The position numbers and the translations under genes are program-made. A DNA stretch of 64,000 nt from Mesonia hippocampi (GTDB lineage: Bacteria > Bacteroidota > Bacteroidia > Flavobacteriales > Flavobacteriaceae), in assembly GCF_014197445.1 (NCBI RefSeq), contig NZ_JACIFO010000006.1:62001-126000 (forward strand), read 5' to 3'. The notes below the pieces were generated by a model. The model saw only the letters and a program-made list of their open reading frames with translations. It ran no database searches and had not been told where the DNA came from. How positions within the stretch are numbered: the first letter of the stretch is position 1; every line of letters starts with the position of its first letter. Positions 6,719-44,132 of this stretch are shown in pieces.

Positions 6719-7333
6719 ATGAGTCTTAAAAAAGCTGGAATATTAATTTTTGTTCTTCTGTTAATCGATCAGGTTTCTAAATTTTACATAAAAACCAATT
6801 TTATGATAGGAGAAGAAATAAAAGTGTTTGATTGGTTTAGGATTCTTTTTGTAGAAAACGAAGGCATGGCTTGGGGTGCTCAAATTCCTGGAGAATACGG
6901 CAAACTTGCCCTTACCTTATTTAGGCTTGTAGCTATTGTAGGGATTGGCTATTGGTTGTGGGATTCGGTTAAGAAAAAAGCAACCGCTGTTTTAATAGCC
7001 GGGATATCGCTTATTTTTTCTGGAGCTATGGGTAATATAATAGACTCTGTTTTCTATGGTATTATATTTAACGATAGTCATGGACAATTAGCCACATTTA
7101 TGCCCGAGGGTGGAGGTTACGGCACTTTATTTCATGGAAAAGTGGTAGATATGCTTTACTTTCCACTATGGAGCGGTTATCTGCCAGAATGGATTCCGTT
7201 TTGGGGCGGGCAATACTTTACCTTTTTTGACCCTGTTTTTAATATAGCAGATTCTTGTATTTTTGTAGGTTTTGTTTTGTTGCTTATTTTTAACAAGAAA
7301 GCTTTTCCGAAGGAAGAAAATAAAGAAGCCTAG
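6719..7333 (+). CDS. lspA: Lipoprotein signal peptidase (signal peptidase II)
   Basis: An inner-membrane aspartic protease that removes the signal peptide of diacylglyceryl-modified prolipoproteins. The 204-residue product has four hydrophobic segments (about 6-24, 68-85, 95-115 and 178-197). Both catalytic aspartates are visible: GNIIDSVFYG in the third region and FNIADSCIFVG before the last helix. VENEGMAWG near residue 45 fits the conserved N-x-G-x-A/S-F/W motif. It is longer than the E. coli enzyme (about 165) because of a soluble insert near residues 120-160, usual in Bacteroidota. It converges with the cyclo-ligase gene with a 12-base gap. Confidence 0.93.
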   Translation: MSLKKAGILIFVLLLIDQVSKFYIKTNFMIGEEIKVFDWFRILFVENEGMAWGAQIPGEYGKLALTLFRLVAIVGIGYWLWDSVKKKATAVLIAGISLIFSGAMGNIIDSVFYGIIFNDSHGQLATFMPEGGGYGTLFHGKVVDMLYFPLWSGYLPEWIPFWGGQYFTFFDPVFNIADSCIFVGFVLLLIFNKKAFPKEENKEA

Positions 7334-23715: not shown

Positions 23716-25068
23716 ATGGGTAAAATTTTAATAGTAGAAGATGATGTGGCTTTTTGCCAAATGCTAGAAACTTTTTTAAGAAAAAAAAAGCATGAAGTAA
23801 CAGTAGCTTATTCGGGAGAAGAAGCTTTACGAAAAATAAAATCCAATACGTATCAAATTATTTTGACCGACGTTCGCCTTCCTGAAAAGGACGGCAATTT
23901 TATTCTTAATGAAGTAACCGAGAATTACCCAGAAACTAAAGTAATTTTAATGACGGGCTATGCAGAGGTAAACATGGCCGTAAATGCGATGAAGGAAGGA
24001 GCGGTAGATTATATCTCGAAACCCGTACAACCAGAGCAACTATTAGCAAGCGTAGAAAAGGCATTGGCTATAAAAACAACTCCTAAAGCGATGGCAAAAC
24101 CTGCTAAAAGCAAGACAAGCTCAAAGCCGTTAACCGAAGCTAAATATGTAAAAGGAGTAAGTGATGCTTCAAAAAAACTTAATAATTATATTCAGCTTGT
24201 AGGACCTACAAGCATGTCGGTTTTAATTATAGGAGAAAGCGGAACAGGAAAAGAATATGTAGCAAAAAACATACACAATCAGAGTAAACGAAGTAAAGAA
24301 GCTTTTATAGCGGTAGATTGCGGCGCAATTCCTAAAGAAATTGCCTCAAGCGAGTTTTTTGGACATGTAAAAGGCTCTTTTACAGGTGCAGTAAACGATA
24401 AAATAGGGCATTTTGAAGCCGCAAATAACGGGACTTTATTTTTAGACGAAATAGGCAATTTAAGTTACGAACTGCAAGTGCAACTCTTACGAGCATTGCA
24501 AGAACGAAAAATAAAACCTGTAGGAAGTAATAAAGAGGTAGCGGTAAATATTAGAATAATTACTGCGACTAACGAGAACTTAAAAGAAGCCGTAGAAGCA
24601 GGTACTTTTCGTGAAGATTTATACCACAGGTTAAACGAATTTTCTATCCAAGTACCTTCTTTAAAAGAACGAAATGAAGATATTATGCTTTTTGCTAATT
24701 TTTTCTTAGCCAAGGCAAATAGAGAATTAGAAAAGGAGGTAGTTGGTTTTTCTGATGATACGATTACTTTGCTCACGCAATACCAATGGCCTGGTAATTT
24801 GAGAGAAATGCAAAATGCGATTAAACGTGCTGTATTGCTAACTACAGAGACCTTGATTTTACCCGAGGTTTTTCCAGAAAATATGCTTTCCTATAATTCT
24901 GATAAAGATGAAAAAGATTACTCTTTGTTTAAAAACAAAAACGAAGAAGAAATGATAATTAATGCTTTAAAAGAAACAGGAGGAAACAAAAGCAAAGCTG
25001 CCAGGCTGTTAAACATAGACAGGAAAACCTTGTACAATAAGCTGAAACAGTACGAGATAGAATTGTAA
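23716..25068 (+). CDS. NtrC-family sigma-54-dependent response regulator
   Basis: A 450-residue activator of sigma-54 promoters. The receiver domain (1-120) has the acidic pair at 9-10 and phosphoacceptor D52 in TDVRLPEKDG. The AAA+ domain (about 140-370) has Walker A GESGTGKE (about 173), the sigma-54 contact loop GSFTGA (about 220, canonical GAFTGA with Ala to Ser), Walker B GTLFLDEIGNL, and RxxDLYHRL-type arginine-finger region REDLYHRLNEF. The C-terminal Fis-type helix-turn-helix is GGNKSKAARLLNIDRKTLYNKLK. No histidine kinase is adjacent, so its partner is elsewhere, or could be the hybrid kinase at 28.9-31.3 kb; that is speculation. Confidence 0.94.
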   Translation: MGKILIVEDDVAFCQMLETFLRKKKHEVTVAYSGEEALRKIKSNTYQIILTDVRLPEKDGNFILNEVTENYPETKVILMTGYAEVNMAVNAMKEGAVDYISKPVQPEQLLASVEKALAIKTTPKAMAKPAKSKTSSKPLTEAKYVKGVSDASKKLNNYIQLVGPTSMSVLIIGESGTGKEYVAKNIHNQSKRSKEAFIAVDCGAIPKEIASSEFFGHVKGSFTGAVNDKIGHFEAANNGTLFLDEIGNLSYELQVQLLRALQERKIKPVGSNKEVAVNIRIITATNENLKEAVEAGTFREDLYHRLNEFSIQVPSLKERNEDIMLFANFFLAKANRELEKEVVGFSDDTITLLTQYQWPGNLREMQNAIKRAVLLTTETLILPEVFPENMLSYNSDKDEKDYSLFKNKNEEEMIINALKETGGNKSKAARLLNIDRKTLYNKLKQYEIEL

Positions 25069-25074
25069 ATATTT

Positions 25075-26115
25075 TTACTTCCAGTAGTGAATTTTTCTTT
25101 TTACAATAGTGTTAAGTAGTGTTTTTTCTCCAGACTTTCTTTCCATTTTTTGAGTTGTCCAATTGTTATACTCATCGTACTTATAGCTGTAAGAGGTTTC
25201 TAACTCGATTTTATTTTGAGGGCTGTAGGATGTTATTTTTATTGGGTTTTTATTAGAATCATAGTTGCATATTGTGGTCATTATTTTTTTGCCTCGCCTG
25301 TAGGTTTCCTCTTTTATCAGTAAATTATCATCATTATAGGTATAGATAGATTCTCGGTAAGGTTTTCCTCTTGTATTTTTATAAAAATGTTCTAAACTTC
25401 TTTTTTTATTGTAAATATTTAATGTGCTATCAATTTGAGAGGTGGCAATAATTCTTTTATATAAAGTTCCATCTTCCCTATAATAAAAATGCTCTATTTG
25501 AGGGGTATTTATAAGGTTGTTGGTTAATACTCTTTCCTTTGTTTTATGTAGTGGGTTTATAAAGTGATATTTGTATGTTATTGGGTTTTTAAGGTTAATG
25601 CTGTTTATTTCTTCTTGTAGTAATCTTCCTTTCGTATCATATAAGTAGCTTCTAGAACTTTGTTGGTTTTGTGTTTTAATAAGTTTGCCTTTTTTGTTAT
25701 ACACGTTTAATAGAATTACTTCTGAAGAGTCTTTGGAAAAGTCTTTTTCTATAAATTTTTTCTTATTGGCGGAGTAACTTACAGTTTGCTCTGTTTTTAC
25801 TTTACCATGAAAAAAATAAGAGCCTGTATGGTAAATGTTTCTTTTTATAAAGCGTTGCTTTTTGTCGAAAAAAACTTCAAAATCTTTATTTAATTTGGCA
25901 GAATCTGTAACGGGTGTTGCGGTTGCTTTATATTGTATAATCTGTTTTACGTTGCCTTTAGTATCAAAATCGGTTACATCTATTATGCTGTTATCTTTAA
26001 AAAAATCCTGTAAGGGGAAGTTTTCGTTAGTTTCAATATTTGTATCTATATAACGAGAAGAAGTTTGGCAGCCTGTAATAATTAATAAAATACTATAAAG
26101 AAAATATTTTTTCAT
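25075..26115 (-). CDS. Lipoprotein with YD-type repeats, unknown function
   Basis: A 346-residue lipoprotein: MKKYFLYSILLIITGCQ is a short signal peptide with a lipobox cysteine at 16. The body has repeated beta-hairpin-like units such as VYNKKGKLIKTQ, YDTKGRLLQEE, TYNDDNLLIKEE and NYDSNKNPIKI, which resemble YD/RHS-like or MORN-like repeats. Repeats of this type often form extended beta-sheets that bind ligands or partner proteins. I do not recognise a specific family. It is the last gene of the ABC operon (10-base gap after the CxxC protein) and converges with the sigma-54 regulator, 6 bases away. Confidence 0.6.
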   Translation of the reverse strand: MKKYFLYSILLIITGCQTSSRYIDTNIETNENFPLQDFFKDNSIIDVTDFDTKGNVKQIIQYKATATPVTDSAKLNKDFEVFFDKKQRFIKRNIYHTGSYFFHGKVKTEQTVSYSANKKKFIEKDFSKDSSEVILLNVYNKKGKLIKTQNQQSSRSYLYDTKGRLLQEEINSINLKNPITYKYHFINPLHKTKERVLTNNLINTPQIEHFYYREDGTLYKRIIATSQIDSTLNIYNKKRSLEHFYKNTRGKPYRESIYTYNDDNLLIKEETYRRGKKIMTTICNYDSNKNPIKITSYSPQNKIELETSYSYKYDEYNNWTTQKMERKSGEKTLLNTIVKRKIHYWK

Positions 26116-26125
26116 TTGTTTTAAT

Positions 26126-26563
26126 TTATTTTATAATCACAACATCTGTTAAGATGTAATTGCAATGGTTAATATCACTTTTATTGAGAGCTAATACGCC
26201 TTGAACGGTAATTATTTGATCTGTTTTTAATGTTTGTTTGGTTTCAAACTGAAGCTCAATAATGGTTTCTGGGCCTGCCATCCCGCAGAAAAAACAAGTT
26301 GCCATAGGGTGTTGAGAAAGGAGAAAGGTTGTTCCGCCTTCAACAAGGTCTAAAACATAACCTTTTATTTCTAGTTGTTCTCCTTCTATACTTTTTATTG
26401 TTTCTCCAAATTCGGGAATTAAAAAGTAATCGGCATAATCTTCAAGGTATGTTCTTTCAAACTTTACATCAGCCATATCTGTCCAATTTACTTTTTTTAC
26501 TTGGGTATAGGAGGTGAAGGAAAAACTTAGGCTGATAAAAAAGAGGAGGAGATTACTTTTCAT
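26126..26563 (-). CDS. Secreted CxxC protein, DUF3299-like
   Basis: A 145-residue exported protein (signal peptide about 1-20, ending SYTQ). The core KSIEGEQLEIKGYVLDL followed by FLLSQHPMATCFFCGMAGPETIIEL, with C90 and C93 in CFFCG, resembles the DUF3299 proteins that accompany FtsX-type ABC transporters in Gram-negative bacteria. The two cysteines with nearby histidine (H86) could bind metal or form a redox pair. It starts inside the end of the permease gene (11-base overlap) and so is translationally coupled to it. Confidence 0.65.
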   Translation of the reverse strand: MKSNLLLFFISLSFSFTSYTQVKKVNWTDMADVKFERTYLEDYADYFLIPEFGETIKSIEGEQLEIKGYVLDLVEGGTTFLLSQHPMATCFFCGMAGPETIIELQFETKQTLKTDQIITVQGVLALNKSDINHCNYILTDVVIIK

Positions 26564-27737
26564 AAGATAATATTTTTGGAATGTTTATAGATATAATTGA
26601 CTTTAAATTAAATAAAGTTATTACAGATAATAGTAATAAGACAGAGAAAAACAGATAGATATCAATGTCTGTAATAAAAGCTTGTTGAATGGTATAGTTG
26701 TATTCTCTACCTATATAGTTGTAAAGGTATGTGCCCCCTGCAAAGCTTAAAATTAGTCCTAGAATGTACCCGGAAATACTAATTATTAAACCTTCGTAGA
26801 AAACTAACAATATGAGCTGTAGTTGGTTGGCTCCATAAACCCTCATTAACGCGAGTTCATAACTTCTATCTTTTACAATTTTGTATAAGCTTATGTAGAT
26901 GCTAAAAACAGAGATAATTAAAATAACAATAGCCATTATCTGAATTATTTTTACTCCAATTCCTGTATAATTATATAGTTTATCTAGTTCAAACTTTGTT
27001 AAGGCGGCTTGCATAGAAGACTTTTCGTTTATGCTTCGTGGAATTCTAACAAAACCCATTGGACTTTTAAATTGTACTAAAACCGAGGTGATTTCTTTAT
27101 TTTTAGAGGCGTGGTCATGGTGATGATGCATATCCCAAACGGTTTCTAACGGAGTAACAATAAGGTTGTCTAAAACAGAATGAGATGTTTTGTAAATACC
27201 AACTACAGTAAGATGATGATGGTCATGGTGATGGTTACCTTCTTCTATCAGGCCATGAGAGCTTACAAAACTATCTCCAATTTTTAGATTGCTTTTTTTG
27301 GCTACAGTGGCACCAATTACTACTTCGAGAGGCTTGATGGCGCTTTTTCCTTCTAACAATTCACCTCCATATAAGGTTTTATAAGCAGGAGTTGTTCCTA
27401 TTATTCGATATCCTTTATAATTATCACCATAAGAAATAGGAATGGCATTTTTAATTAAAGGGTTTTTTGTAATCTTTTTAGCTTCATCAAAATTTATATT
27501 TCCTGTAGGGTTATCTATATGTAAAACAGAGGATAAGATAAGTTGTAAAGGGCTTCCTTTTGCCCCAATAACCATATCGATTCCTGCGGTGTTTTTTGCA
27601 ATCTTATTGGTTACTTGCTTCTGAAATTTAAAAGATAATGAGATGATAACAACACTAAATGCTAATAATAATATACTCAAAATAGCATTTAAAGGCTTGG
27701 TAATAATGTTTTTATAGCTTATTTTAAATAAATTCAT
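26553..27737 (-). CDS. FtsX/MacB-type ABC permease with histidine-rich extracytoplasmic clusters
   Basis: A 394-residue permease with one N-terminal membrane helix (about 15-35), a large extracytoplasmic domain (about 40-265) and three C-terminal helices (about 268-290, 310-335, 355-378), the MacB/LolC topology. Characteristic sequence: IDMVIGAKGSPLQLILSSVLHIDNPTGNI. Two clusters stand out: HHHDHHH at 169-175 and MHHHHDH at 203-209, both in the exposed domain, suggesting Zn, Ni, Co or Cu binding. Its start overlaps the ATPase stop by 4 bases. Relatives sit with DUF3299 proteins and have been tied to zinc (the Vibrio Zrg system is one recollection, not checked). The transport direction is unknown. 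Confidence 0.8.
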   Translation of the reverse strand: MNLFKISYKNIITKPLNAILSILLLAFSVVIISLSFKFQKQVTNKIAKNTAGIDMVIGAKGSPLQLILSSVLHIDNPTGNINFDEAKKITKNPLIKNAIPISYGDNYKGYRIIGTTPAYKTLYGGELLEGKSAIKPLEVVIGATVAKKSNLKIGDSFVSSHGLIEEGNHHHDHHHLTVVGIYKTSHSVLDNLIVTPLETVWDMHHHHDHASKNKEITSVLVQFKSPMGFVRIPRSINEKSSMQAALTKFELDKLYNYTGIGVKIIQIMAIVILIISVFSIYISLYKIVKDRSYELALMRVYGANQLQLILLVFYEGLIISISGYILGLILSFAGGTYLYNYIGREYNYTIQQAFITDIDIYLFFSVLLLLSVITLFNLKSIISINIPKILSYEK

Positions 27738-28363
27738 AAGGCAACAATATTTTCAAATTCAGGAATAATACGTTTATCATGCGTAACTAAAATAAGGTGA
27801 GAATTATTGATAGCCGCAGCTCCTTTTAATAAAGAAATAACACGCTTAGCATTTACATCATCAAGGTTAGATGTTGGCTCATCGGCAAGGATAATAGAAG
27901 GCTTGTTTATGATAGCCAAAGCGATTCCGGCACGTTGTTTCTGGCCCTCACTAAGCGCTGTAACTTTTTTATGTTTGTATGGAAGAATATTTAAATCGGT
28001 TAATATTTTATCTATCTCCAATGCATTGTAAGGTGTTTTAGAGAATAAAAGCTTTGCTTGAATATTTTCTAATAAGGTTAAAGATTTGAAGAATAATGGC
28101 TTCTGGAAAACAATACCAATGTTATCTTTTCTGTACTTATCTTTTTGTTTTTCTGAAAACGAAAGAAGCTCGATATCATCAATAATAATACTTCCTTTTT
28201 TAGGAGTTAATAAAAGAGCTAAAATTTGCAATAAAGTAGTTTTTCCTATACCAGATTCACCTAGAATAATTACCGATTCATTGTTGTTAATATGCATATC
28301 GGGAAAATTAAAAATTTCTCCCGCTTTATCGTATTGAAACGTTAAATTAGTTGTGTGTATCAT
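27734..28363 (-). CDS. ABC transporter ATP-binding protein (LolD/MacB type)
   Basis: A 209-residue ATPase: Walker A GESGIGKTTLL (35-45), Q-loop in VFQKPLFFKSLTLLEN (about 90), signature LSEGQKQRAGIALA (about 137-150), Walker B IILADEPTSNLDD (about 157-169) and switch histidine in LILVTHDKRI (about 190). The signature has E in place of the second S (LSEGQ for LSGGQ), a tolerated variant. It overlaps the permease start by 4 bases and thus forms an ABC pair with it. It is cytoplasmic and powers the system; this type usually works as a mechanotransducer and not as a classical channel. Confidence 0.93.
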   Translation of the reverse strand: MIHTTNLTFQYDKAGEIFNFPDMHINNNESVIILGESGIGKTTLLQILALLLTPKKGSIIIDDIELLSFSEKQKDKYRKDNIGIVFQKPLFFKSLTLLENIQAKLLFSKTPYNALEIDKILTDLNILPYKHKKVTALSEGQKQRAGIALAIINKPSIILADEPTSNLDDVNAKRVISLLKGAAAINNSHLILVTHDKRIIPEFENIVAL

Positions 28364-28390
28364 TTTCTCACTTGTTTAAAAGATGATAAT

Positions 28391-28413
28391 TTCTTTTTAG
28401 GTTATAAAAAGAA
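28391..28413 (-). repeat. Inverted repeat between the small Cys/His protein gene and the ABC ATPase
   Basis: TTCTTTTTA (28391-28399) and TAAAAAGAA (28405-28413) are exact reverse complements with a 5-base loop. It sits in the 79-base gap between two genes of the operon and could act as an attenuator or RNA processing site. Confidence 0.4.
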
Positions 28414-28442
28414 TGATGTAAAATAGATTTTACTGTTAATGC

Positions 28443-28799
28443 TTAACAGGTTTTAGAAACATATTTTTGTAGAGAAAATGGAGGGGCCCGAAGGCTAAAG
28501 TAAGTCCTATTATTATCCAAAAATCTATTAGGAGTTACAGGTGTAATATTTGTATAAATCTCCAAAACAGGAGGCTGATAATAAATTGTAGGGTTAATAG
28601 AAAAAGCATGAAGGTTAAAGCTACATATTGTACAATCTGTATGTGTAGCTGAAACAGATTTTATGGAAAAGGTATCGGATTCTTTTTCTATATGAAATCC
28701 CTTATCTTGATGAAAAAAAGAGTGTAATGACGATGATGATACCACAAAACATAATATCCCTATAAAAAAATAAGCAATAAAATGTTTTTTATGAATCAT
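28443..28799 (-). CDS. Small membrane-anchored Cys/His protein, unknown function
   Basis: A 118-residue protein with an N-terminal hydrophobic segment (about 8-24), then a small extracytoplasmic domain. Potential metal ligands cluster at H53, D55, C56, C59 and H64 (in HTDCTICSFNLH), with more histidines at 26 and 30. It ends in a cysteine. The pattern recalls DUF2946-type proteins often found before metal-uptake genes, but I cannot assign a family firmly. It lies 79 bases upstream of the ABC ATPase on the same strand and probably opens the operon, perhaps as a periplasmic metal carrier or sensor. Confidence 0.55.
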   Translation of the reverse strand: MIHKKHFIAYFFIGILCFVVSSSSLHSFFHQDKGFHIEKESDTFSIKSVSATHTDCTICSFNLHAFSINPTIYYQPPVLEIYTNITPVTPNRFLDNNRTYFSLRAPPFSLQKYVSKTC

Positions 28800-28880
28800 A
28801 TTTATTCTTGTTTCATCAGGTTGAAAAATAAGATTTTAAATATAGCGAATAGTTTTTAAGGAGCAAATAAAAATTTTAAA

Positions 28881-31301
28881 TCAGGTTCTTTCCTCTAAGC
28901 TTTGTAAAAGTTTTTTCAGTTCTTTTATGGCCTTTTGGGTTGTTGCTATAATTTTATTTTCGCTAAGGTTTAGTTCTTTTTGTCGCTCAAGTGTATTGAT
29001 GAGCTCTATGGCAGAGGATGCTTTTATCTGCTTTAGCATAGGTAATATTTTATGTGCAGTAAAAGCAATGGTATTAAAATCTTTTTTGGTAATGCTTTTT
29101 TCGAGAATTGATATGTTTATTTTGGTGTTGTCAACAAAAGTGTTTAGTAATAAAGCTAAAGATTCCTCGTCGTTATCTGTAAAAATGTGTAGTTGAGTTA
29201 GGTCGTAAAGGGTTTCTTTATTTTTGTGTTTCAGCACATCTTTGTTGGTGATGTTGTAAGTTAAATTTAAAGTTACTGCTATGGTTTCCAATAGGTCGCT
29301 TTTCTGGAAGGGTTTATCTAGTTTTGCAGTAAATCCATAATCGGTATATATTTTATCGTCTACTTCGGTACGTCCAGAAATGGCGATAATAGGGATTTCT
29401 TTAAGGCTTTTTTGAAGTTTTATTTCTCTAATCAATTCAAAACCATTTAGCCCAGGCATTTGTATATCGGTAATAATTAAATGGTACTCGTGCTGGTTAA
29501 TTTGTTTTAGTGCTTCTTCAGGAGCTTTGCTTGTTGTGCAAGTAAATCCAGCTTGTTCAATAATGGTTTTAGTAAGGTTTAGTTGGGTAGGGTCATCATC
29601 AATTAAGAAAATATGATAGTTTTTGTTCCCTGTAATGGTAATTTGCTTGTTGTTTGGTGTAATGGGGAGGTGTTTAGTATGAGACACTGGGATACGAACA
29701 CTAAAAACACTACCTTTTTCTGGGGTAGATTCTACCTCGATTTTACCACCTAGCAGGTTAACTAGTTTTTTTGTGATGGTAAGCCCTAAGCCAGAACCTT
29801 CATATTGTTTCTGTAGCTGAGAAAACTCTTTGAAAATTTGTTCTTTTTCTGCTGCATTAATACCAATACCTGTATCGGCTATTTCAACAACAAGCCAGTT
29901 GCTGTTTAAGGAAAAGGTATCTAAGTTTGCGGTAATAGTAATGCTTCCTTGTTGCGTAAATTTATAGGCATTCCCAATCAAGTTGGTAAGTATTTGTTTA
30001 ATCCTAAAGGGGTCGCTAAGTAAAGGGTTTTCTAATTGGGCGTCTATATGCGTATTTATTTTTAACTTTTTAGGGTTATTTGAAGGGATCGCATTAATAA
30101 TACAATCTTCTATCAAGGTTTTTGGTGCAAAAGGTAATTCTTCAATAATTAATTTTCCAGCTTCTAATTTAGACAGGTCAAGCAAATCATTCACTAACCT
30201 CAAGATATAAGCGGAAGCTTTTTGTAGTTTATTAAGGTAGTGGGTTTGTTGTTGGGTTAATTCTGAGTTGTTTAATAAATCGGCATACCCCAGCACCGTG
30301 TTTAGCGGCGACCTAAGGTCGTGAGTAACCATTGCCATAAACTGTTCTCTGCGCTTTAGTAAGAATTCTGCATAGTTTTTGGCTTTTTCAACCTGTATGC
30401 GGTAGCGTTGACTCCTGTTGGTATCTTTTATAATAAGGTAGACAAACAAAATAATGGTAAGAAACGAAACTACGCCTAAGGAAATAATAATATAAAACGT
30501 GTTTTTGAGCAACTCTTGTGATTTTGCTACTTGTGCTACAGATTTTTGGACTTCTTCGTGTTCTATCTCGGCATGTAATTTTCGTAATTGATGCGATACA
30601 ATGCGGTCGTTCTCTAATAGCGTCAGCTCTTTTTTATAAACCGTATTTTGGTAGTGTTTTTCTTCAGATTCTAAATCTATAAGTACTTTTTTCATCGCAT
30701 TGATAAGCGAATCTGCCGATTGCTGAGTAAGCCTTTGCGCATTATCTTCTTTGGCATACTCTAAGTACTTGATCATTACCTTTTTTATATGTGGAGGTAG
30801 TTTTCTTAAGCGTTGCTCATAGTTATCATCTTCAAAAATAGAGTTAAGTTGCTCTAGCCTATTTAATACCCTATCATAATAATTATTACTAAGGTTCTTT
30901 TTTCTAAGCTCGAGGAGTTCTACCAAGTTTTGTTCTTTTACAAGCAGAAGACTTTTTATACTATCTAGCTCGGTGGTGGTTTTATTGTTTACAGCATAGG
31001 TTTGCTTTAATTGCTCTAGTAAAAGTTCTGTTGAGTCGAGATGAGTTTTAAATTCGGGTAATCTTTTTGTGTCCTGTTTTTGTATAATATCCCTACTAAT
31101 TCCCTCTACGGTATACATATTAGCTACCGTTTGGCTAATTAGCATTAAGCGTTTATTATTTATAGCACCTTCTTGGTTTGCCTGTGTAAGCGAAGCAAAT
31201 TTGCTGTAAACAAACCAAATTGTAATAATAGCAAAAGCGGTAAGAAGTAAGAAACCTGCTAATGCTTTAAACTCTATAGATCGTTTTGTGTTTTGTACCA
31301 T
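28881..31301 (-). CDS. Hybrid sensor histidine kinase with receiver and Hpt domains
   Basis: An 806-residue inner-membrane kinase. Helix 1 (about 13-33), an extracytoplasmic helical sensor (about 34-268) without recognisable ligand domain, and helix 2 (about 270-292). HisKA has the phospho-histidine in MVTHDLRSPLNTVLGYADLL (about 327), and HATPase has NLIGNAYKFTQ, IADTGIGI and GSGLGLTITKKLV (up to about 545). The receiver has acidic DDD and phospho-aspartate in IITDIQMPGLNG (about 611), and a C-terminal Hpt domain has AHKILPML (His about 750). This is a full internal phosphorelay that needs an outside response regulator; none is adjacent. It is upstream of, and on the same strand as, the histidine-rich ABC operon, 81 bases away. 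Confidence 0.93.
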   Translation of the reverse strand: MVQNTKRSIEFKALAGFLLLTAFAIITIWFVYSKFASLTQANQEGAINNKRLMLISQTVANMYTVEGISRDIIQKQDTKRLPEFKTHLDSTELLLEQLKQTYAVNNKTTTELDSIKSLLLVKEQNLVELLELRKKNLSNNYYDRVLNRLEQLNSIFEDDNYEQRLRKLPPHIKKVMIKYLEYAKEDNAQRLTQQSADSLINAMKKVLIDLESEEKHYQNTVYKKELTLLENDRIVSHQLRKLHAEIEHEEVQKSVAQVAKSQELLKNTFYIIISLGVVSFLTIILFVYLIIKDTNRSQRYRIQVEKAKNYAEFLLKRREQFMAMVTHDLRSPLNTVLGYADLLNNSELTQQQTHYLNKLQKASAYILRLVNDLLDLSKLEAGKLIIEELPFAPKTLIEDCIINAIPSNNPKKLKINTHIDAQLENPLLSDPFRIKQILTNLIGNAYKFTQQGSITITANLDTFSLNSNWLVVEIADTGIGINAAEKEQIFKEFSQLQKQYEGSGLGLTITKKLVNLLGGKIEVESTPEKGSVFSVRIPVSHTKHLPITPNNKQITITGNKNYHIFLIDDDPTQLNLTKTIIEQAGFTCTTSKAPEEALKQINQHEYHLIITDIQMPGLNGFELIREIKLQKSLKEIPIIAISGRTEVDDKIYTDYGFTAKLDKPFQKSDLLETIAVTLNLTYNITNKDVLKHKNKETLYDLTQLHIFTDNDEESLALLLNTFVDNTKINISILEKSITKKDFNTIAFTAHKILPMLKQIKASSAIELINTLERQKELNLSENKIIATTQKAIKELKKLLQSLEERT

Positions 31302-38210: not shown

Positions 38211-39365
38211 TTAATGAGAATGTCCTCCTGAACTCTCCGAAAGCAAATCAAAAGTACCTTTAACTAAAAACACGTCTTCAGGACTTGTTTTGTCTATAGG
38301 AATAAAAGGTTTTATGCCATTGTGTTGTAAACTGTTTTCTACAGTTACTTTTTCAAAATAATAGGCGTCTTGTTGGGTTTCCTTCAATCTTAATACATAG
38401 GTTTTTCCTTCTAAATCTGTAAAAGCAGCTTCTGGTAGGCTAAGCATTTTTTGGGTGTTAACGCTAAACATGGCTTTTACAAACATTCCAACTTTAAAAT
38501 AATTGGCCTCATTTTCTGGATGAGCATGTACTTTAATGCTTCTATCGGATTCTATTTCTGCACCTATTAACCTGATATATGCTTTATGGATACTATCGGA
38601 AACTTCGGGTATTTGAAATTCGATGGTTTGCCCTTCGCTTAGGTATTTAATGTCTTTTTCAAATACTTTTAGTTCTAGATGCACGTGTTCTGTATTGATG
38701 ATTTCCATAATTGGAGCCGATTTTGCTACAAAAGATCCTTGTGAAACAAACATTTTAGAGATGCTACCAGAAATAGGGGCATAGATTTTTATGCTTTCTG
38801 AAAAATTTCCGTTTAATACTTGTTTATGGCTTAACCTCATTAAGGTTATTTTCTTTTGTAAGGCGTTATCTTTTGCTTGTGCCGCTTTGTATAAGCTACG
38901 TGTTTCCTCAAAAACCTTTTGCGAGATAACCTTGTCTGCTAGAAGGTTTTTTTTACGTTGGTATTCGGATGCTAGGTATTTGAGTTGCGCATTATTTTCT
39001 GCATAATCCTGTTGGATGCTTAAATATTCTGGGTTAGAAAGTTCTATCAAAACATCTCCTTTTTTTACCTTATCACCAATTAGTAAGCTAGTGTTAGAAA
39101 CATAGCCTTCAAAAAAGGTAGATACCGATGCTTTGTTTTTAGGCGGAACATCGATGGTTCCATGAGCGGTTAATTTTTCTGAAAAATTAGTACTATCTGC
39201 TTTTCCGAGTTTCAGCTTTGCATGTTCAAACTGAGTTTTAGTAACTTTTATAAGTTCGTCTTCTTCTGTATTGTTAGGGGTTGTTGTTTGCGTTTTTTGT
39301 TCAGAAGAGTTGCATCCTGCTATTAGCAGCATGATAAATAGGTATATGCTATAAGTAATTTTCAT
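38211..39365 (-). CDS. Efflux RND periplasmic adaptor subunit (CusB/CzcB-like lipoprotein)
   Basis: A 384-residue membrane-fusion protein. Lipobox IAGC (Cys about 18), a hinge region, a barrel-sandwich part with VSTFFEGYVSNTSLLIGDKVKKGDVLIELSNPEYL, an alpha-hairpin (about 110-185), the returning lipoyl half YAPISGSISKMFVSQGSFVAKSAPIMEI, and a beta-barrel/proximal domain. The C-terminus ends GGHSH, a possible metal site. It links the RND pump to its outer-membrane part across the periplasm. It follows the pump gene after 4 bases. The substrate class is heavy metals, judged from the pump. Confidence 0.92.
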   Translation of the reverse strand: MKITYSIYLFIMLLIAGCNSSEQKTQTTTPNNTEEDELIKVTKTQFEHAKLKLGKADSTNFSEKLTAHGTIDVPPKNKASVSTFFEGYVSNTSLLIGDKVKKGDVLIELSNPEYLSIQQDYAENNAQLKYLASEYQRKKNLLADKVISQKVFEETRSLYKAAQAKDNALQKKITLMRLSHKQVLNGNFSESIKIYAPISGSISKMFVSQGSFVAKSAPIMEIINTEHVHLELKVFEKDIKYLSEGQTIEFQIPEVSDSIHKAYIRLIGAEIESDRSIKVHAHPENEANYFKVGMFVKAMFSVNTQKMLSLPEAAFTDLEGKTYVLRLKETQQDAYYFEKVTVENSLQHNGIKPFIPIDKTSPEDVFLVKGTFDLLSESSGGHSH

Positions 39366-39369
39366 TGTT

Positions 39370-42300
39370 TTAGTAATTTAAGGTAAAGTAATTAAGCTGA
39401 ATGGTACTGTAATTATAAGCGCTTAGAAGCTTGAGATAAGCCAGTTTTATCTCTTGTGCGTTTTCGATACTTTGAACGTACCTAAAAAAATCTATCTCGC
39501 CATTTTTATAGCTAGAAGTAGCGTTTTTGATAATCTCATCGGCAATAATAAGCTGATGGCTTTTAAAGTTGTCTAAACTGTTTTTTTGCGTTTGGTAGTT
39601 GTTTAGAAGCTGTTGTTTTTTGGTATCAAAATCTAATTGTTTTTGCTCTTTTATTAAAGCAGCAGCAGAAGCCCTGTATTTTAGCGCTTTGATTTTTGCC
39701 CTGTTTCCAAAAAATAAAAGCGGGATTTTAACACCAATTTGATAAGCATCGTAGTTGTTTGAAATATAGCTGTTGGTTTTTAAAGAGTAACTAAGGCTAA
39801 TGTCTGGCAACAACTCATTTTTTGCTAATGATACTTCTTGTTCTGATAGCTTAACGTTGAGCTCTTCTAAGGTTAAGCTAGGGTTGCTGGCAATTAAATC
39901 TAAGTTTAAGCTTAAAGGTGCCAACGAATCGTTTTTTAATAAAAGTTCGCCGTCAGGCTGAATAATTTGTTGTAAGGCTAGAAGGGCATTATTACGATTT
40001 TCCTTTAACTCGTTAAGCTTTACTTCTAATTGCTGTTGTTTGGCTTCAGCAGTTATTTTTTCTAAATAATTAGATTCTCCTTCTTCAAATTTTCGTTTTG
40101 CCATGTATGTAAAATCGCTATAAATACTATCTAATTGTCTATAAATTTTTAATTCCGTTGTATTGGTTAAATAGTTTTGATAAGCTAAACGAAGGGCTTT
40201 TTTCTGTAAGATTATGTTGAGTTCCGTTTGGGTTTCAGCATAGGCTGTCTTGGTTTTTAACAAGCGTTTTTGTGAGCCATAAACAGTTGGAAACTTAAAA
40301 TCTTGAGCAAGGCTATACGTGTAAATAGATTCCCCATACATAGGATCTGTCTCTAAGTTATCATGACTATAAGAGAAACTTGTTTTATCAAATTGGTAAG
40401 CATTTCCTTCTTCTGTTTTTAGTGCTTGAGTGTTTAGCTGTTGTGCTTTTAAGTTGTTATTGTTTTTAAGCATTTGGGCTTCTAGCTTCTCAATTTCTTT
40501 TTCTTGCGAAAACCCAGAAAAGCTAAGTAAGCTTAACACAACAATACTAATGGCTGTTTTGGGTAAATTAGGTTTTTTTATTCTGTTTTCTACAATCATA
40601 TAAAGAACGGGTAAAACAATAAGTGTTAATAAGGTAGAAGTAGCGAGCCCGCCAATAACTACCGTGGCCAATGGTTTTTGAACCTCGGCACCAGCTCCTG
40701 TTGATATTGCCATAGGAAGAAACCCTAAGGCGGTTGAACTGGCAGTTAATAATACGGCTCGTAAACGCTCTTGTGTAGCGGTGATAATGTCTGCTTTTGT
40801 AAGCTTGGGTTTGTTTTGTTTAAGACTTTTAAAATATTCGGCAAGGATGATACCATTTAATACCGCAATCCCAAATAAAGCAATAAACCCAACACCTGCA
40901 GAAATACTAAAAGGCATATCTCGTAACCATAAAAATAAAATTCCGCCAACAGATGCAAATGGTATGGCTGTAAATATTAATAAGGCATCGCGGTGTTTTT
41001 TTAATGCAAAAAGTAGTAGTAGGTAGATTAAAACAAGTATAATGGGTACTACTATTTTTAATCGTTTACTGGCGCTTTCTAAGTTTTCAAATTCTCCCCC
41101 GTAAGTAACGCTATAACCTGTAGGAAGTGTTAAACTTGTAGTTAAGGTATTTTGAATATCGGTTACTACCGATTTTAAATCGCGGTTTCTTACGTTTACT
41201 CCAATTACAATACGTCTTTTTGTTTCGTCTCTAGAGATTTTTGCAGGACCTTTTTGGAGTTTAATTTCTGCTACTTCGCTAAGCGGAATTTTACCAGACT
41301 CGGGTGTATCAATCATTAGGTTTTCTACATCGCTGATGTCTTGTCTATTTTTATCATCTAAACGTACTACAATATCAAACCTGCGTTCTCCTTCAAAAAC
41401 AACCCCAACTTGCTTACCTGCAAAACCAGCGGCAACAATATTGTTTATATCTTCTATATTTAAACCGTAGCGTGCAATTTTATCGCGCTTATAGTTTACG
41501 GTCATTTCGGGTAAACCAACGGTTTTCTCTACGCTAATGTCGGCTGCTCCTTCAATATTGCTTATTAAATGTTGTACTTCGTTTGCTTTGGCGGCTAGGA
41601 TGTTTAAATCTTCTCCAAAAATTTTAATAGCAATATCGGTTTGTACACCGCTAACAAGCTCATTAAAACGCATTTCTATGGGTTGGGTAAACTGTATTTC
41701 CATACCCGGAATTACACTTAAAGCTTCTTTCATTTTATCGGCAAGCTCATCTTTTGTATCGGCAGATACCCATTCGCTTTTTGGTTTTAATCGGATAATA
41801 ACATCAGAATCTTGCATAGACATAGGGTCGGTAGGAACTTCGGCGGCTCCAATTCGGCTGACTACTTGTATGACCTCTGGAAAACGTTCTAACAGAATTT
41901 TTTCTATCATGGTTGTGCGCTCGATAGTACTGTTTAGTGATTTTCCTGTTTTTAGTACAGGTTGAATTACAAAGTCGCCTTCGTCTAAGGTGGGTACAAA
42001 TTCACTTCCCATTCTAGAAAATGTAAATCCGCCAAGTATAATAAGAAAAATAGCAGCGCCTATAATTATTTTAGGTTTTGCTAGTGACCATTTTAAGATA
42101 GGAAGATAGGTTTTTTTAGCAAAATGCATAAACCTATAAGATATGGTTGTTGTTTTCTGGATTTTAGGCTTTAAAAACAAGCTGCAAGCAACAGGAATCC
42201 AAGTGAAACATAAAAACATAGCTCCTAGTAGGGCAAAACTAAAGGTGATAGCCATAGGCCTAAACATTTTTCCTTCGGTACCAGAGAGTGTCATAATAGG

Positions 42301-43695
42301 AATAAAAACAATAAGGATGATAAGTTGCCCAAAGATGGCAGAGTTCATCATTTTTGAAGCTCCAGAAAGTGTTATTTTATCTTTTAAGTTTTTGTATTCT
42401 TGAGATTTTAAAGCTTTAAAATCCTTGTGTTTAAGCATCATTTTAAATGCTACAAATTCTACAATAATAACAGCGCCATCTATAATAATACCAAAATCTA
42501 AAGCACCCATACTCATTAGGTTGGCATCGATATCGAAGATGTACATTAAGCTAATGGCAATTAAAAAACTTAGGGGAATTACAGAGGAGATAATAAGTCC
42601 GGAGCGTAAATCGCCAATTAAGAGTATGACAATAAAAGCTACTACTAGGAGTCCTAAAATTAAGTTTTCAGCAATGGTAAAGGTGGTTTTTCCAATCAGT
42701 TCGCTTCTGTCTAAAAAACCATTGATGTGTACTCCTTCGGGTAAGCTTTGTTCTATGGTGTTTAATCGTTCCTTAACAGCTTGGATAGTGCTGTTAGCAT
42801 CGGCACCTTTAAGCATCATTACTTGCCCTAGAATTTTTTCTCCTTCGCCGTTTCCTGTTATGGCGCCAAATCTTCTTGCGTGCCCATATTTTACGGTGGC
42901 TACATCGTTAATAAAAATGGGATTTCCATCTCTGTTTTCTACACTTATTTTTTTTATATCCTCTAGGCTTTTTACAAGTCCTTCTCCTCTAATAAAATAA
43001 GCTTGGTCGTTGCGTTCTATATAGCTACCTCCGGTGATAGAGTTGTTTTTTTCCAGTGCAGAAAAAACTTTATCGATACTTAAGTTTAATGCTTGGAGTT
43101 TTTCTGTATTAATAGCTACTTCGTATTCTTTTAAGAAGCCTCCCCAGGTGTTTATTTCTACAACATTAGGAATTCCTGATAACTGACGTTTTACAACCCA
43201 GTCTTGGATGCTTCGTAAATCCATCACAGAGTAATTGTCTTTATAAGCCTCGTCTACCTCTAGTGTATATTGGTATATTTCACCAAGACCAGTGGTAATA
43301 GGTCCCATTTCTGGAGTTCCGAAGGCGGCAGGTATTTTTTCTTTCGCGGCATCAATTTTTTCAGAAATTAATTGCCTAGGAATGTAAGTGCCTAAATCAT
43401 CTTCAAAAACAATGGTAACTACCGAGAGTCCAAATTTACTAACCGAGCGGATTTCTTTTACACCAGGCAGGTTAGACATTTCGAGCTCTACAGGATATGT
43501 AATAAATTGCTCTACCTCTGCGGTAGATAAATTTCGTGAAGTGGTAATTACTTGCACTTGATTATTGGTAATGTCTGGAACAGCACCAACGGAAATTTTT
43601 GTAAGGGAGAAAATTCCGAAACCTACAATAAAGGTGGTTAATAATAGAATGAAGTATTTAGACTTTAAACTAAAATCAATAATTTTAGATAACAT
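39370..43695 (-). CDS. CzcA-family heavy-metal RND pump fused to a TolC-like outer-membrane domain
   Basis: A 1441-residue fusion. Residues 1 to about 1035 form a complete HME-RND pump: twelve membrane helices, two large periplasmic loops, and the TM4 motif DFGIIIDGAVIIVEF (about 397-411), of the divalent (Zn/Co/Cd/Ni) CzcA type and not the Cu/Ag CusA type; the usual final N of VEN is F here. Then comes a hydrophobic stretch ending LLSFSGFSQ (to about 1064) that looks like a signal peptide with a signal peptidase I site. A TolC-type outer-membrane efflux domain of about 380 residues rich in long helices follows. Such fusions occur in Bacteroidota. Expected to be cut into pump and channel. First pump gene after a His-rich small protein gene. 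Confidence 0.93.
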   Translation of the reverse strand: MLSKIIDFSLKSKYFILLLTTFIVGFGIFSLTKISVGAVPDITNNQVQVITTSRNLSTAEVEQFITYPVELEMSNLPGVKEIRSVSKFGLSVVTIVFEDDLGTYIPRQLISEKIDAAKEKIPAAFGTPEMGPITTGLGEIYQYTLEVDEAYKDNYSVMDLRSIQDWVVKRQLSGIPNVVEINTWGGFLKEYEVAINTEKLQALNLSIDKVFSALEKNNSITGGSYIERNDQAYFIRGEGLVKSLEDIKKISVENRDGNPIFINDVATVKYGHARRFGAITGNGEGEKILGQVMMLKGADANSTIQAVKERLNTIEQSLPEGVHINGFLDRSELIGKTTFTIAENLILGLLVVAFIVILLIGDLRSGLIISSVIPLSFLIAISLMYIFDIDANLMSMGALDFGIIIDGAVIIVEFVAFKMMLKHKDFKALKSQEYKNLKDKITLSGASKMMNSAIFGQLIILIVFIPIMTLSGTEGKMFRPMAITFSFALLGAMFLCFTWIPVACSLFLKPKIQKTTTISYRFMHFAKKTYLPILKWSLAKPKIIIGAAIFLIILGGFTFSRMGSEFVPTLDEGDFVIQPVLKTGKSLNSTIERTTMIEKILLERFPEVIQVVSRIGAAEVPTDPMSMQDSDVIIRLKPKSEWVSADTKDELADKMKEALSVIPGMEIQFTQPIEMRFNELVSGVQTDIAIKIFGEDLNILAAKANEVQHLISNIEGAADISVEKTVGLPEMTVNYKRDKIARYGLNIEDINNIVAAGFAGKQVGVVFEGERRFDIVVRLDDKNRQDISDVENLMIDTPESGKIPLSEVAEIKLQKGPAKISRDETKRRIVIGVNVRNRDLKSVVTDIQNTLTTSLTLPTGYSVTYGGEFENLESASKRLKIVVPIILVLIYLLLLFALKKHRDALLIFTAIPFASVGGILFLWLRDMPFSISAGVGFIALFGIAVLNGIILAEYFKSLKQNKPKLTKADIITATQERLRAVLLTASSTALGFLPMAISTGAGAEVQKPLATVVIGGLATSTLLTLIVLPVLYMIVENRIKKPNLPKTAISIVVLSLLSFSGFSQEKEIEKLEAQMLKNNNNLKAQQLNTQALKTEEGNAYQFDKTSFSYSHDNLETDPMYGESIYTYSLAQDFKFPTVYGSQKRLLKTKTAYAETQTELNIILQKKALRLAYQNYLTNTTELKIYRQLDSIYSDFTYMAKRKFEEGESNYLEKITAEAKQQQLEVKLNELKENRNNALLALQQIIQPDGELLLKNDSLAPLSLNLDLIASNPSLTLEELNVKLSEQEVSLAKNELLPDISLSYSLKTNSYISNNYDAYQIGVKIPLLFFGNRAKIKALKYRASAAALIKEQKQLDFDTKKQQLLNNYQTQKNSLDNFKSHQLIIADEIIKNATSSYKNGEIDFFRYVQSIENAQEIKLAYLKLLSAYNYSTIQLNYFTLNY

Positions 43696-43739
43696 GATTG
43701 TGCTTATTTAATTAAAAATCAGTGAGTTTTGATTGTTAA

Positions 43740-44132
43740 TTAGATAAACTGAGGGGGGTCGAGTAAGTTGAGTAAGTTTAAAGAGTCAAAGTTTTTAACA
43801 TAAGCAGCATTGAGTTCTGGCTTATAGTTTTTGATAACCATTTCTAATGCTAGCGTATAGTCAGGAATAAACAAATTGTAATTATGTGTATGAAATTTAC
43901 ACTCTTTAAAAGGAAGTTTTTCATGATCTGAATGCTCATGGTGCTTTTTATGGACTTCTTTTTGTTTGCCAAAATGTTTGTCGATAAATGTATAAACATC
44001 GTCGTTAAACTCAGCTTTATGGAGGTTGTAATGTTTTACAGCGGCACTTATGTTATAAATACTTGTGCTCGAATGCATTAAAGATTGCATTAAAGAAGAG
44101 AAGCATAATATATAAAGTATAAGTACTTTCAT
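43740..44132 (-). CDS. Small secreted histidine-rich protein preceding the RND operon
   Basis: A 130-residue protein with an N-terminal hydrophobic segment (1-18, probable signal peptide). Its histidine-rich stretch KKHHEHSDHEK (about 62-72) is followed by CKFHTH (Cys about 77). I do not recognise the family. Positioned 44 bases upstream of the RND pump gene on the same strand, so probably the first gene of the operon; a periplasmic metal chaperone or sensor is a reasonable inference. A minus-strand TAACTTTG (44164-44171) could be its -7 element. Confidence 0.6.
   Translation of the reverse strand: MKVLILYILCFSSLMQSLMHSSTSIYNISAAVKHYNLHKAEFNDDVYTFIDKHFGKQKEVHKKHHEHSDHEKLPFKECKFHTHNYNLFIPDYTLALEMVIKNYKPELNAAYVKNFDSLNLLNLLDPPQFI

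What the first reader, a model, noticed from the sequence alone, without database searches (positions are those of the whole stretch)
25075..28799. Compact five-gene operon around an FtsX/MacB-type ABC permease with two histidine-rich extracytoplasmic clusters
Genes overlap or nearly touch (ATPase/permease by 4 bases, permease/CxxC protein by 11, then a 10-base gap). The permease carries HHHDHHH and MHHHHDH in its exposed domain. The partners are a Cys/His-rich small membrane protein, a secreted CFFCG protein and a YD-repeat lipoprotein. Together they look like a metal-handling envelope ABC machine. FtsX-type permeases with DUF3299-type partners have been linked to zinc in Vibrio (from memory). 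The YD-repeat lipoprotein and the small Cys/His protein are the least explained parts and may be lineage-specific.
Basis: partly seen in the sequence, partly recalled or inferred. Interest (0 to 1): 0.65.

Follow-up and report, generated by a model that had tools for sequence, protein, structure and literature searches.

The report
Zinc machine with built-in histidine loops
This looks like a laterally acquired set of five genes for an envelope ABC machine that most likely helps the bacterium obtain scarce zinc; it resembles the known Zrg zinc system but lacks the usual zinc-catching protein and carries histidine-rich loops on the permease instead.

Summary
In detail: five minus-strand genes (28799-25075), both histidine clusters and CFFCG. 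A profile of the permease family scores five DUF3299-associated (ZrgB-type) permeases at 198-237 bits and 35 ORFs from LolC/E-type control loci at 39 or less. CFFCG aligns with DUF3299/ZrgE by profile (E 1.9e-8); the fold match is tied. Fur-family, MerC, COG0523 or FolE genes flank 39 of 93 family loci (37 of 91 distinct) and 0 of 38 control loci. A palindrome that I read as a Zur box precedes 25 of 90 operons. ZrgA is over cut-off in 0 of 247 Bacteroidota genomes (unvalidated by controls); instead, histidine-rich loops spring from invariant His residues of the permease. Best reading: a Zrg-like zinc-acquisition machine without ZrgA. Against it: the window copy and its two sisters have no such box, and zinc, direction and mechanism are inferred. 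The operon separates a kinase and regulator that adjoin in 11 of 14 relatives, so it was probably inserted. The YD-repeat lipoprotein was found only in this genus. A new variant of a known kind.

The parts
28443..28799 (-). Small Cys/His protein (118 aa), probable first gene; family found before TonB-receptor-sized genes in other loci
   Evidence: no Pfam family over cut-off
27734..28363 (-). ABC ATPase (209 aa)
   Evidence: ABC_tran 105 bits; no NCBIfam equivalog over cut-off among the 25 shown of 205
26553..27737 (-). MacB-fold permease of ZrgB type (394 aa)
   Evidence: model pLDDT 89.6, fold matches LolE, HrtB, MacB and others
27213..27233 (-). Histidine cluster 1, residues 169-175 (contains H171)
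27111..27131 (-). Histidine cluster 2, residues 203-209 (starts at invariant H204)
27423..27425 (-). Codon of invariant D105, proposed metal-site residue
   Evidence: 20 of 20, 91 of 91; metal role inferred
27255..27257 (-). Codon of invariant H161, proposed metal-site residue
   Evidence: 20 of 20, 91 of 91; metal role inferred
27168..27170 (-). Codon of invariant D190, proposed metal-site residue
   Evidence: 20 of 20, 91 of 91; metal role inferred
26126..26563 (-). Secreted CFFCG protein (145 aa), OB fold, ZrgE/DUF3299-like
26285..26296 (-). CFFC motif (Cys90, Cys93)
   Evidence: both Cys invariant in 65 aligned sequences
25075..26115 (-). YD-repeat lipoprotein (346 aa), found only in this genus here
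28837..28867 (-). Candidate promoter TTTG-N19-TATATTTA (Bacteroidota consensus recalled from memory)
   Evidence: one of 3 in the window, 1.5 expected; none seen before L021 or L022; weak
25069..28880 (.). Probable inserted segment between response regulator 23716-25068 (+) and sensor kinase 28881-31301 (-), which adjoin in relatives
   Evidence: GC 30.3% against 34.6%

Best explanation
The operon encodes a Zrg-like zinc-acquisition machine without a ZrgA binding protein. The ATPase drives a MacB-fold (type VII) permease of ZrgB type. Two flexible histidine-rich loops on its periplasmic domain collect zinc and pass it to a site made by the invariant D105, H161, H171, D190 and H204, where the loops begin. 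The secreted OB-fold CFFCG protein, a ZrgE/DUF3299 relative with Cys-x-x-Cys in place of Cys-x-His, accepts or delivers the metal. The small CxxC protein and the lipoprotein are accessories. Shown here: gene content, homology, conservation, zinc-starvation neighbours and a Zur-type palindrome in relatives, no ZrgA found, probable lateral insertion. Inferred: that the metal is zinc in this copy, that the direction is uptake, that the five residues form one site, and every transfer step.
For: Profile scores 198-237 bits for five DUF3299-associated permeases and 167 for a Deinococcus one, 39 or less for 35 control ORFs. Window permease against the Phaeobacter permease, whose operon is Fur, DUF2796, ATPase, permease, DUF3299: 120 bits over 345 residues. 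CFFCG against DUF3299: hhalign probability 95.4, E 1.9e-8; the first Cys aligns with DUF3299's invariant Cys. 4hsp (PA4066, DUF3299) ranks first among solved folds, Z 9.7, tied with other OB folds. Fur-family in 18, MerC in 29, COG0523 in 23, FolE in 21 of 93 loci, any in 39; 0 of 38 control loci. Palindrome in 25 of 90 operon promoters, 5 of 54 held out against 3 of 10,800 shuffled. D105, H161, D190, H204 in 20 of 20 and H171 in 19 of 20 across three phyla. Vibrio zrg genes rise strongly in zinc limitation and zrgA loss impairs growth at low zinc (PMC9817125 passages; PMC9820375 Introduction and Discussion).
Against: No palindrome at the window, L021 or L022, none in its genome at one mismatch or fewer. 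No zinc-regulon neighbour at these three loci; 54 of 91 distinct family loci have none either. Two defining Zrg features, ZrgA and (here) Zur control, were tested and not met. The fold match to ZrgE is within 1 Z of unrelated OB folds and was not in the 50 Foldseek rows shown. No coordinates, so whether the residues meet is unknown. MacB-type permeases are otherwise known as exporters or mechanical machines (recalled).
Confidence: 0.65

Rival explanations
1. A periplasmic metallation machine: ATP-driven movement of the permease loads zinc onto secreted zinc enzymes or onto the CFFCG carrier, without moving zinc into the cytoplasm.
For: Four of four Deinococcus, Shinella and Paracoccus plasmid loci read have an alkaline phosphatase (a zinc enzyme, recalled), a small gene, ATPase and permease in a row; an alkaline phosphatase family gene lies in 11 of 93 family loci, one a duplicate. 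The fold is of the kind of LolE, MacB and HrtB.
Against: 82 of 93 loci have no such gene nearby. Zur-type boxes and COG0523/FolE neighbours point to cytoplasmic zinc economy.
Confidence: 0.15
2. Metal efflux or detoxification: in this copy the machine expels or buffers excess zinc, copper or nickel.
For: No Zur-type box in the window, L021 or L022; the genome's Zur-like regulator lies among genes that I read as CusA/ZntA-type resistance genes (L140); His-rich loops suit many metals.
Against: Relatives with a regulatory signal sit in zinc-starvation contexts; conserved residues are shared by the whole family.
Confidence: 0.1
3. Lipoprotein release or MacAB-like export with incidental histidines.
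For: FtsX/MacB_PCD domains, best NCBIfam matches lolCE and lolE, far below cut-off, shared fold.
Against: Profile separation from control ORFs; the own genome has other lolCE-model matches, the best at 1.7e-47; zinc-gene neighbours; no MacA-like adaptor among the five genes.
Confidence: 0.05

Closest known systems
ZrgABCDE zinc system (Vibrio; PA4063-PA4066 in Pseudomonas aeruginosa)
   Same: Permease type, adjacent ATPase, ZrgE-like secreted partner, small membrane protein before the ATPase, zinc-starvation context in relatives
   Different: No ZrgA (PF10986); histidine-rich loops on the permease; CFFCG partner below DUF3299 detection; small protein not shown to be ZrgD/DUF2607; extra YD lipoprotein; no Zur-type box at this copy
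Type VII ABC machines: LolCDE, MacAB-TolC, FtsEX, HrtBA
   Same: Four-helix permease with a MacB-like periplasmic domain
   Different: Low profile scores for LolC/E-type ORFs, metal-ligand conservation, no MacA-like adaptor, other neighbours
ZnuABC zinc importer
   Same: Presumed task
   Different: Unrelated permease and binding protein (recalled); no ZnuA-family match in this genome

Membership tests
ZrgABCDE | ZrgB-type permease | tested here: met
ZrgABCDE | Adjacent dedicated ABC ATPase (ZrgC) | tested here: met
   4-base overlap. ATPase phylogeny not tested
ZrgABCDE | ZrgA binding protein (DUF2796, PF10986) | tested here: not met
   No match in the own genome and 0 of 247 Bacteroidota genomes over cut-off, 4 below it (none of 14 control genomes rang, so sensitivity was not shown); none by phmmer in the window or L021-L033 beyond two matches at E 0.01-0.04
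ZrgABCDE | ZrgE (DUF3299, PF11736) | tested here: inconclusive
   No Pfam hit; profile-profile E 1.9e-8; 4hsp top but tied
ZrgABCDE | ZrgD (DUF2607) small membrane protein | tested here: inconclusive
   Similar size and place; no DUF2607 match to this or 7 family members
ZrgABCDE | Zur control | tested here: not met
   No Zur-type palindrome at this copy; 25 of 90 operon promoters of the family have it. Zur binding itself not testable
ZrgABCDE | Growth at low zinc depends on it | not testable with these tools
   Needs a deletion strain
Type VII ABC (FtsX/MacB) systems | FtsX domain, MacB-like periplasmic domain, four long helices | tested here: met
LolCDE | lolCE/LolE/LolD equivalog scores | tested here: not met
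   62.9 bits against a cut-off of 362 for lolCE; 140.1 against 308 for LolD
MacAB-TolC | MacA adaptor and ATPase fused to the permease | tested here: not met
   No adaptor family among the five genes, ATPase separate

The most novel reading that the evidence does not exclude
A zinc ABC system spread through Bacteroidota that needs no solute-binding protein: the histidine-rich zinc collector that Zrg systems keep on ZrgA sits here on the permease and feeds an invariant D105/H161/H171/D190/H204 site, and ATP-driven movement of a MacB-type machine hands the zinc to an OB-fold Cys-x-x-Cys carrier. In six ZrgA-bearing operons from six records the permease has at most 3 His per 40 residues; in two of three DUF3299 operons read without an adjacent ZrgA (L033, Ruegeria; not Catenovulum) and in the Bacteroidota family the loops are on the permease.
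Probability: 0.4. Interest if true: 0.75.

Novelty: new variant of a known kind. Interest (0 to 1): 0.52.

Why it matters
Among the zinc ABC systems in the papers that I read, Zrg is the one with a MacB-type permease, and how such a permease handles an ion is not explained there (PMC9820375 Discussion). A branch that lacks ZrgA and carries the histidine-rich stretch on the permease makes the metal site testable on one protein. The palindrome and its neighbours give Bacteroidota a candidate zinc-starvation regulon; my paper searches (openly licensed papers only) did not turn it up in print.

Tried and rejected
LolC/E or MacAB filing: rejected on scores and neighbours. Direct DUF3299 hit: none in the window protein or its genome (none of the 14 control genomes rang either, so that search proves little). 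ZrgA in the locus: not found. Zur-type box in the window: best 11.4 bits at 29938, inside the kinase gene; 20 shuffled windows had maxima of 10.2 on average and 16.3 at most. Own genome at two mismatches: 60 matches against 31 for the reversed pattern, every row shown with two mismatches, list cut. Solved relatives of CFFCG by sequence: none convincing. The Foldseek list shown for CFFCG did not hold 4hsp; the second look did. Small protein: no Pfam family over cut-off in 8 members. DUF4625 in papers: none held. No coordinates came with the models, so I could not measure distances between the conserved residues.

Limits. Genes were called mechanically and families assigned by phmmer seeds from the same loci. 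The 90 promoters are those of the first gene of the mechanical operon, which in some loci is itself a cobW or merC-type gene. The shuffles were of single letters. The 35 control ORFs are those that the family profile matched at E up to 1 in the control loci; I did not classify each.

Against the His/ZrgA trade: four of the six ZrgA-bearing records are Rhodobacterales; Catenovulum (4 His per 40 residues) and Deinococcus radiodurans (2) have neither an adjacent ZrgA nor a dense loop; 7 of 91 family permeases have fewer than 3 His in loop 2. In the 13 related genomes alone the neighbour test is 6 of 13 permease loci against 0 of 26 control loci; one search was fed 27 by my miscount; 26 gives p about 5e-4 by hand.
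Full report
The small gene is 79 bases before the ATPase. A Bacteroidota-type promoter candidate (consensus recalled) lies before the small gene at 28867-28837; it is one of three in the window with 1.5 expected, and none was found before the sister operons L021 and L022, so it is a hint only.

What the permease is. Pfam gives MacB_PCD and FtsX, NCBIfam no family over cut-off. A profile of 13 Bacteroidota relatives scores the Phaeobacter, P. aeruginosa-plasmid, Catenovulum, Ruegeria and L033 permeases at 198-237 bits; each lies beside a DUF3299 gene. A Deinococcus permease scores 167, and 35 ORFs from LolC/E-type control loci score 39 or less. BLASTP with the Phaeobacter permease, whose operon reads Fur, DUF2796, ATPase, permease, DUF3299, gives 120 bits over 345 residues. 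The model (pLDDT 89.6) has the fold of LolE, HrtB and MacB permeases.

What is conserved. In 20 aligned permeases (14 of the Bacteroidota family, L033, four from Proteobacteria, one from Deinococcus) D105, H161, D190 and H204 never vary; H171 is present in 19, and the twentieth has a His one column on. In 91 distinct permeases of the neighbourhood set D105, H161, D190 and H204 hold in 91 and H171 in 88. The two His-rich stretches lie at H171 and from H204 on; loop 2 varies from 13 to 86 residues, is 22% His and 37% Asp/Glu, and has at least 3 His in 84 of 91. The model is least certain in these two stretches (blocks at pLDDT 61 and 69) apart from its last block (66). That the residues form a metal site is inference.

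The partner. A CFFCG-family gene lies near the permease in 85 of 93 loci; of the 8 without, L033 has DUF3299 instead. Cys90 and Cys93 are invariant in 65 aligned sequences. It has no Pfam hit, but its profile aligns with DUF3299 (hhalign probability 95.4, E 1.9e-8): the first Cys falls on DUF3299's invariant Cys, the second one column past its invariant His. Its model is an OB fold (pLDDT 90). VIA-align ranks 4hsp, the DUF3299 protein PA4066, first at Z 9.7 (rmsd 3.9, 108 aligned), but unrelated OB folds lie within 1 Z, so the fold alone does not decide. PMC9820375 (Discussion read) names PA4066 as the ZrgE homologue and says its structure gives no clue to function.

Neighbours. With 13 loci from related genomes and the window, less one repeat, 93 loci were examined. 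Fur-family genes occur in 18, MerC in 29, COG0523 in 23, FolE in 21, any of these in 39, two or more in 27; without two duplicate records, 37 of 91. In 38 control loci around LolC/E-type permeases, 26 from the same 13 genomes, none was found (p 2e-7). So 54 of 91 family loci also show none. Locus L023 holds the small CxxC protein, a TonB-dependent receptor, two lipoproteins (one DUF4625), ATPase, permease, CFFCG and a Fur-family gene, and on the other strand COG0523, FolE and MerC genes. That Zur, some COG0523 and FolE paralogues belong to zinc starvation is established knowledge (COG0523: PMC2770081, title and passages seen).

The box. A search over 96 promoters of the zinc-gene-bearing loci found the palindrome TTAATGCAACTaAGTTGCATTAA in about 64. 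At 14 bits or more it precedes 25 of 90 operons: 20 of 36 in the discovery set, 5 of 54 held out; shuffled held-out promoters reach that in 3 of 10,800, and 700 kb of control loci hold one hit at 14.3. It also precedes fur, merC and cobW genes. I read it as a Zur box; there are no binding data. Four paper searches did not show it in print, and the Zur review PMC6103462 holds no word beginning Bacteroid, Flavobact or TGCAA (passages searched).

The window copy. The window operon and its sisters L021 and L022 lack the box, and the genome has none at one mismatch or fewer, against 2 for the reversed pattern. No ZnuA-family or DUF3299 match was found in the genome. It has three weak cobW-family matches, not classified, and two Fur-family genes: one among genes that I read as housekeeping, one beside genes that I read as CusA/ZntA-type resistance genes. 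Zinc is therefore assigned to this copy by homology, not by local regulation.

Lateral insertion. In 14 other same-genus genomes with a close relative of the response regulator (L176-L189), 11 have the kinase's C-terminus within about 40 bases of it, two have about 0.9 kb between, and one shows no kinase within 1.5 kb. The 11 include both genomes that carry the operon elsewhere. In the window the 3.8-kb operon lies between. It is 30.3% GC; 3.7-kb windows average 34.6% with SD 1.4%. Two of 15 same-genus genomes carry the permease, with other flanking genes. The three form one clade (support 1.0). L034, the named record with the contig length of G012's, is a Mesonia MAG, so the window's genus is probably Mesonia.

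Accessory genes. The YD lipoprotein was found only with these three operons (3 of 93 loci; 3 of 60 genomes counting the own). The small protein family occurs in 13 of 93 loci (14 genes); the next gene is 789-827 residues long, TonB-receptor-sized, for 8 of the 14, one a duplicate; the one tested by Pfam is a TonB-dependent receptor.

ZrgA. Pfam's ZrgA model finds nothing over cut-off in 247 Bacteroidota genomes and 4 weak matches below it; no control genome rang, so sensitivity was not shown. The CFFCG profile finds 33 of the 247, the own included. In six ZrgA-bearing operons from six records the permease has at most 3 His in any 40 residues while the ZrgA proteins are His-rich. Of three DUF3299 operons read without an adjacent ZrgA, L033 and Ruegeria have 14 and 10 His per 40 in the permease, Catenovulum 4. 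On this small sample the His-rich collector seems to have moved from ZrgA to the permease. A like trade is in Table 1 of PMC2770081: 7 of the 9 rows seen, all without ureE, show a His stretch in UreG (passage).

Mechanism and verdict. The most likely task is zinc acquisition at low zinc. Whether zinc crosses the membrane through this permease or is handed between periplasmic carriers is open. I do not file the operon as ZrgABCDE, because ZrgA and, in this copy, Zur control were tested and not met; it appears to work like a Zrg system and is a new variant of that kind.

Noticed in passing
window 38211-44132 (-): RND efflux set: adaptor 38211-39365, a 1441-aa protein 39370-43695 that reads as an RND pump fused to an outer-membrane factor, and a small His-rich protein 43740-44132 before it (my reading of the translations; the small protein had no Pfam family over cut-off).
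   Followed up: no
L140 (own genome, contig C7): A second such set by my reading, with a Zur-like Fur-family gene (6903-7316, FUR) and an apparent P-type ATPase: perhaps a mobile metal-resistance island.
   Followed up: partly
L170, L192, L193, L194: Cassette alkaline phosphatase, small hypothetical, ATPase, related permease in Deinococcus, Shinella and Paracoccus plasmid records: another branch with a different partner.
   Followed up: partly
L023, L028, L029, L040, L041, L045, L048, L056, L081: DUF4625-family and other His-bearing lipoproteins beside TonB-dependent receptors or the ATPase in this context: candidate surface zinc-binding proteins.
   Followed up: partly
L052, L055, L057, L094, L109, L110: Two CFFCG-family genes near one permease; Pseudooceanicola, Sulfitobacter and SC52 likewise have two DUF3299 genes in a row.
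   Followed up: no
window 23716-25068 (+) and 28881-31301 (-): A response regulator and sensor kinase, neighbours in 11 of 14 same-genus relatives, stand 3.8 kb apart here because of the operon; whether their function is disturbed is unknown.
   Followed up: partly
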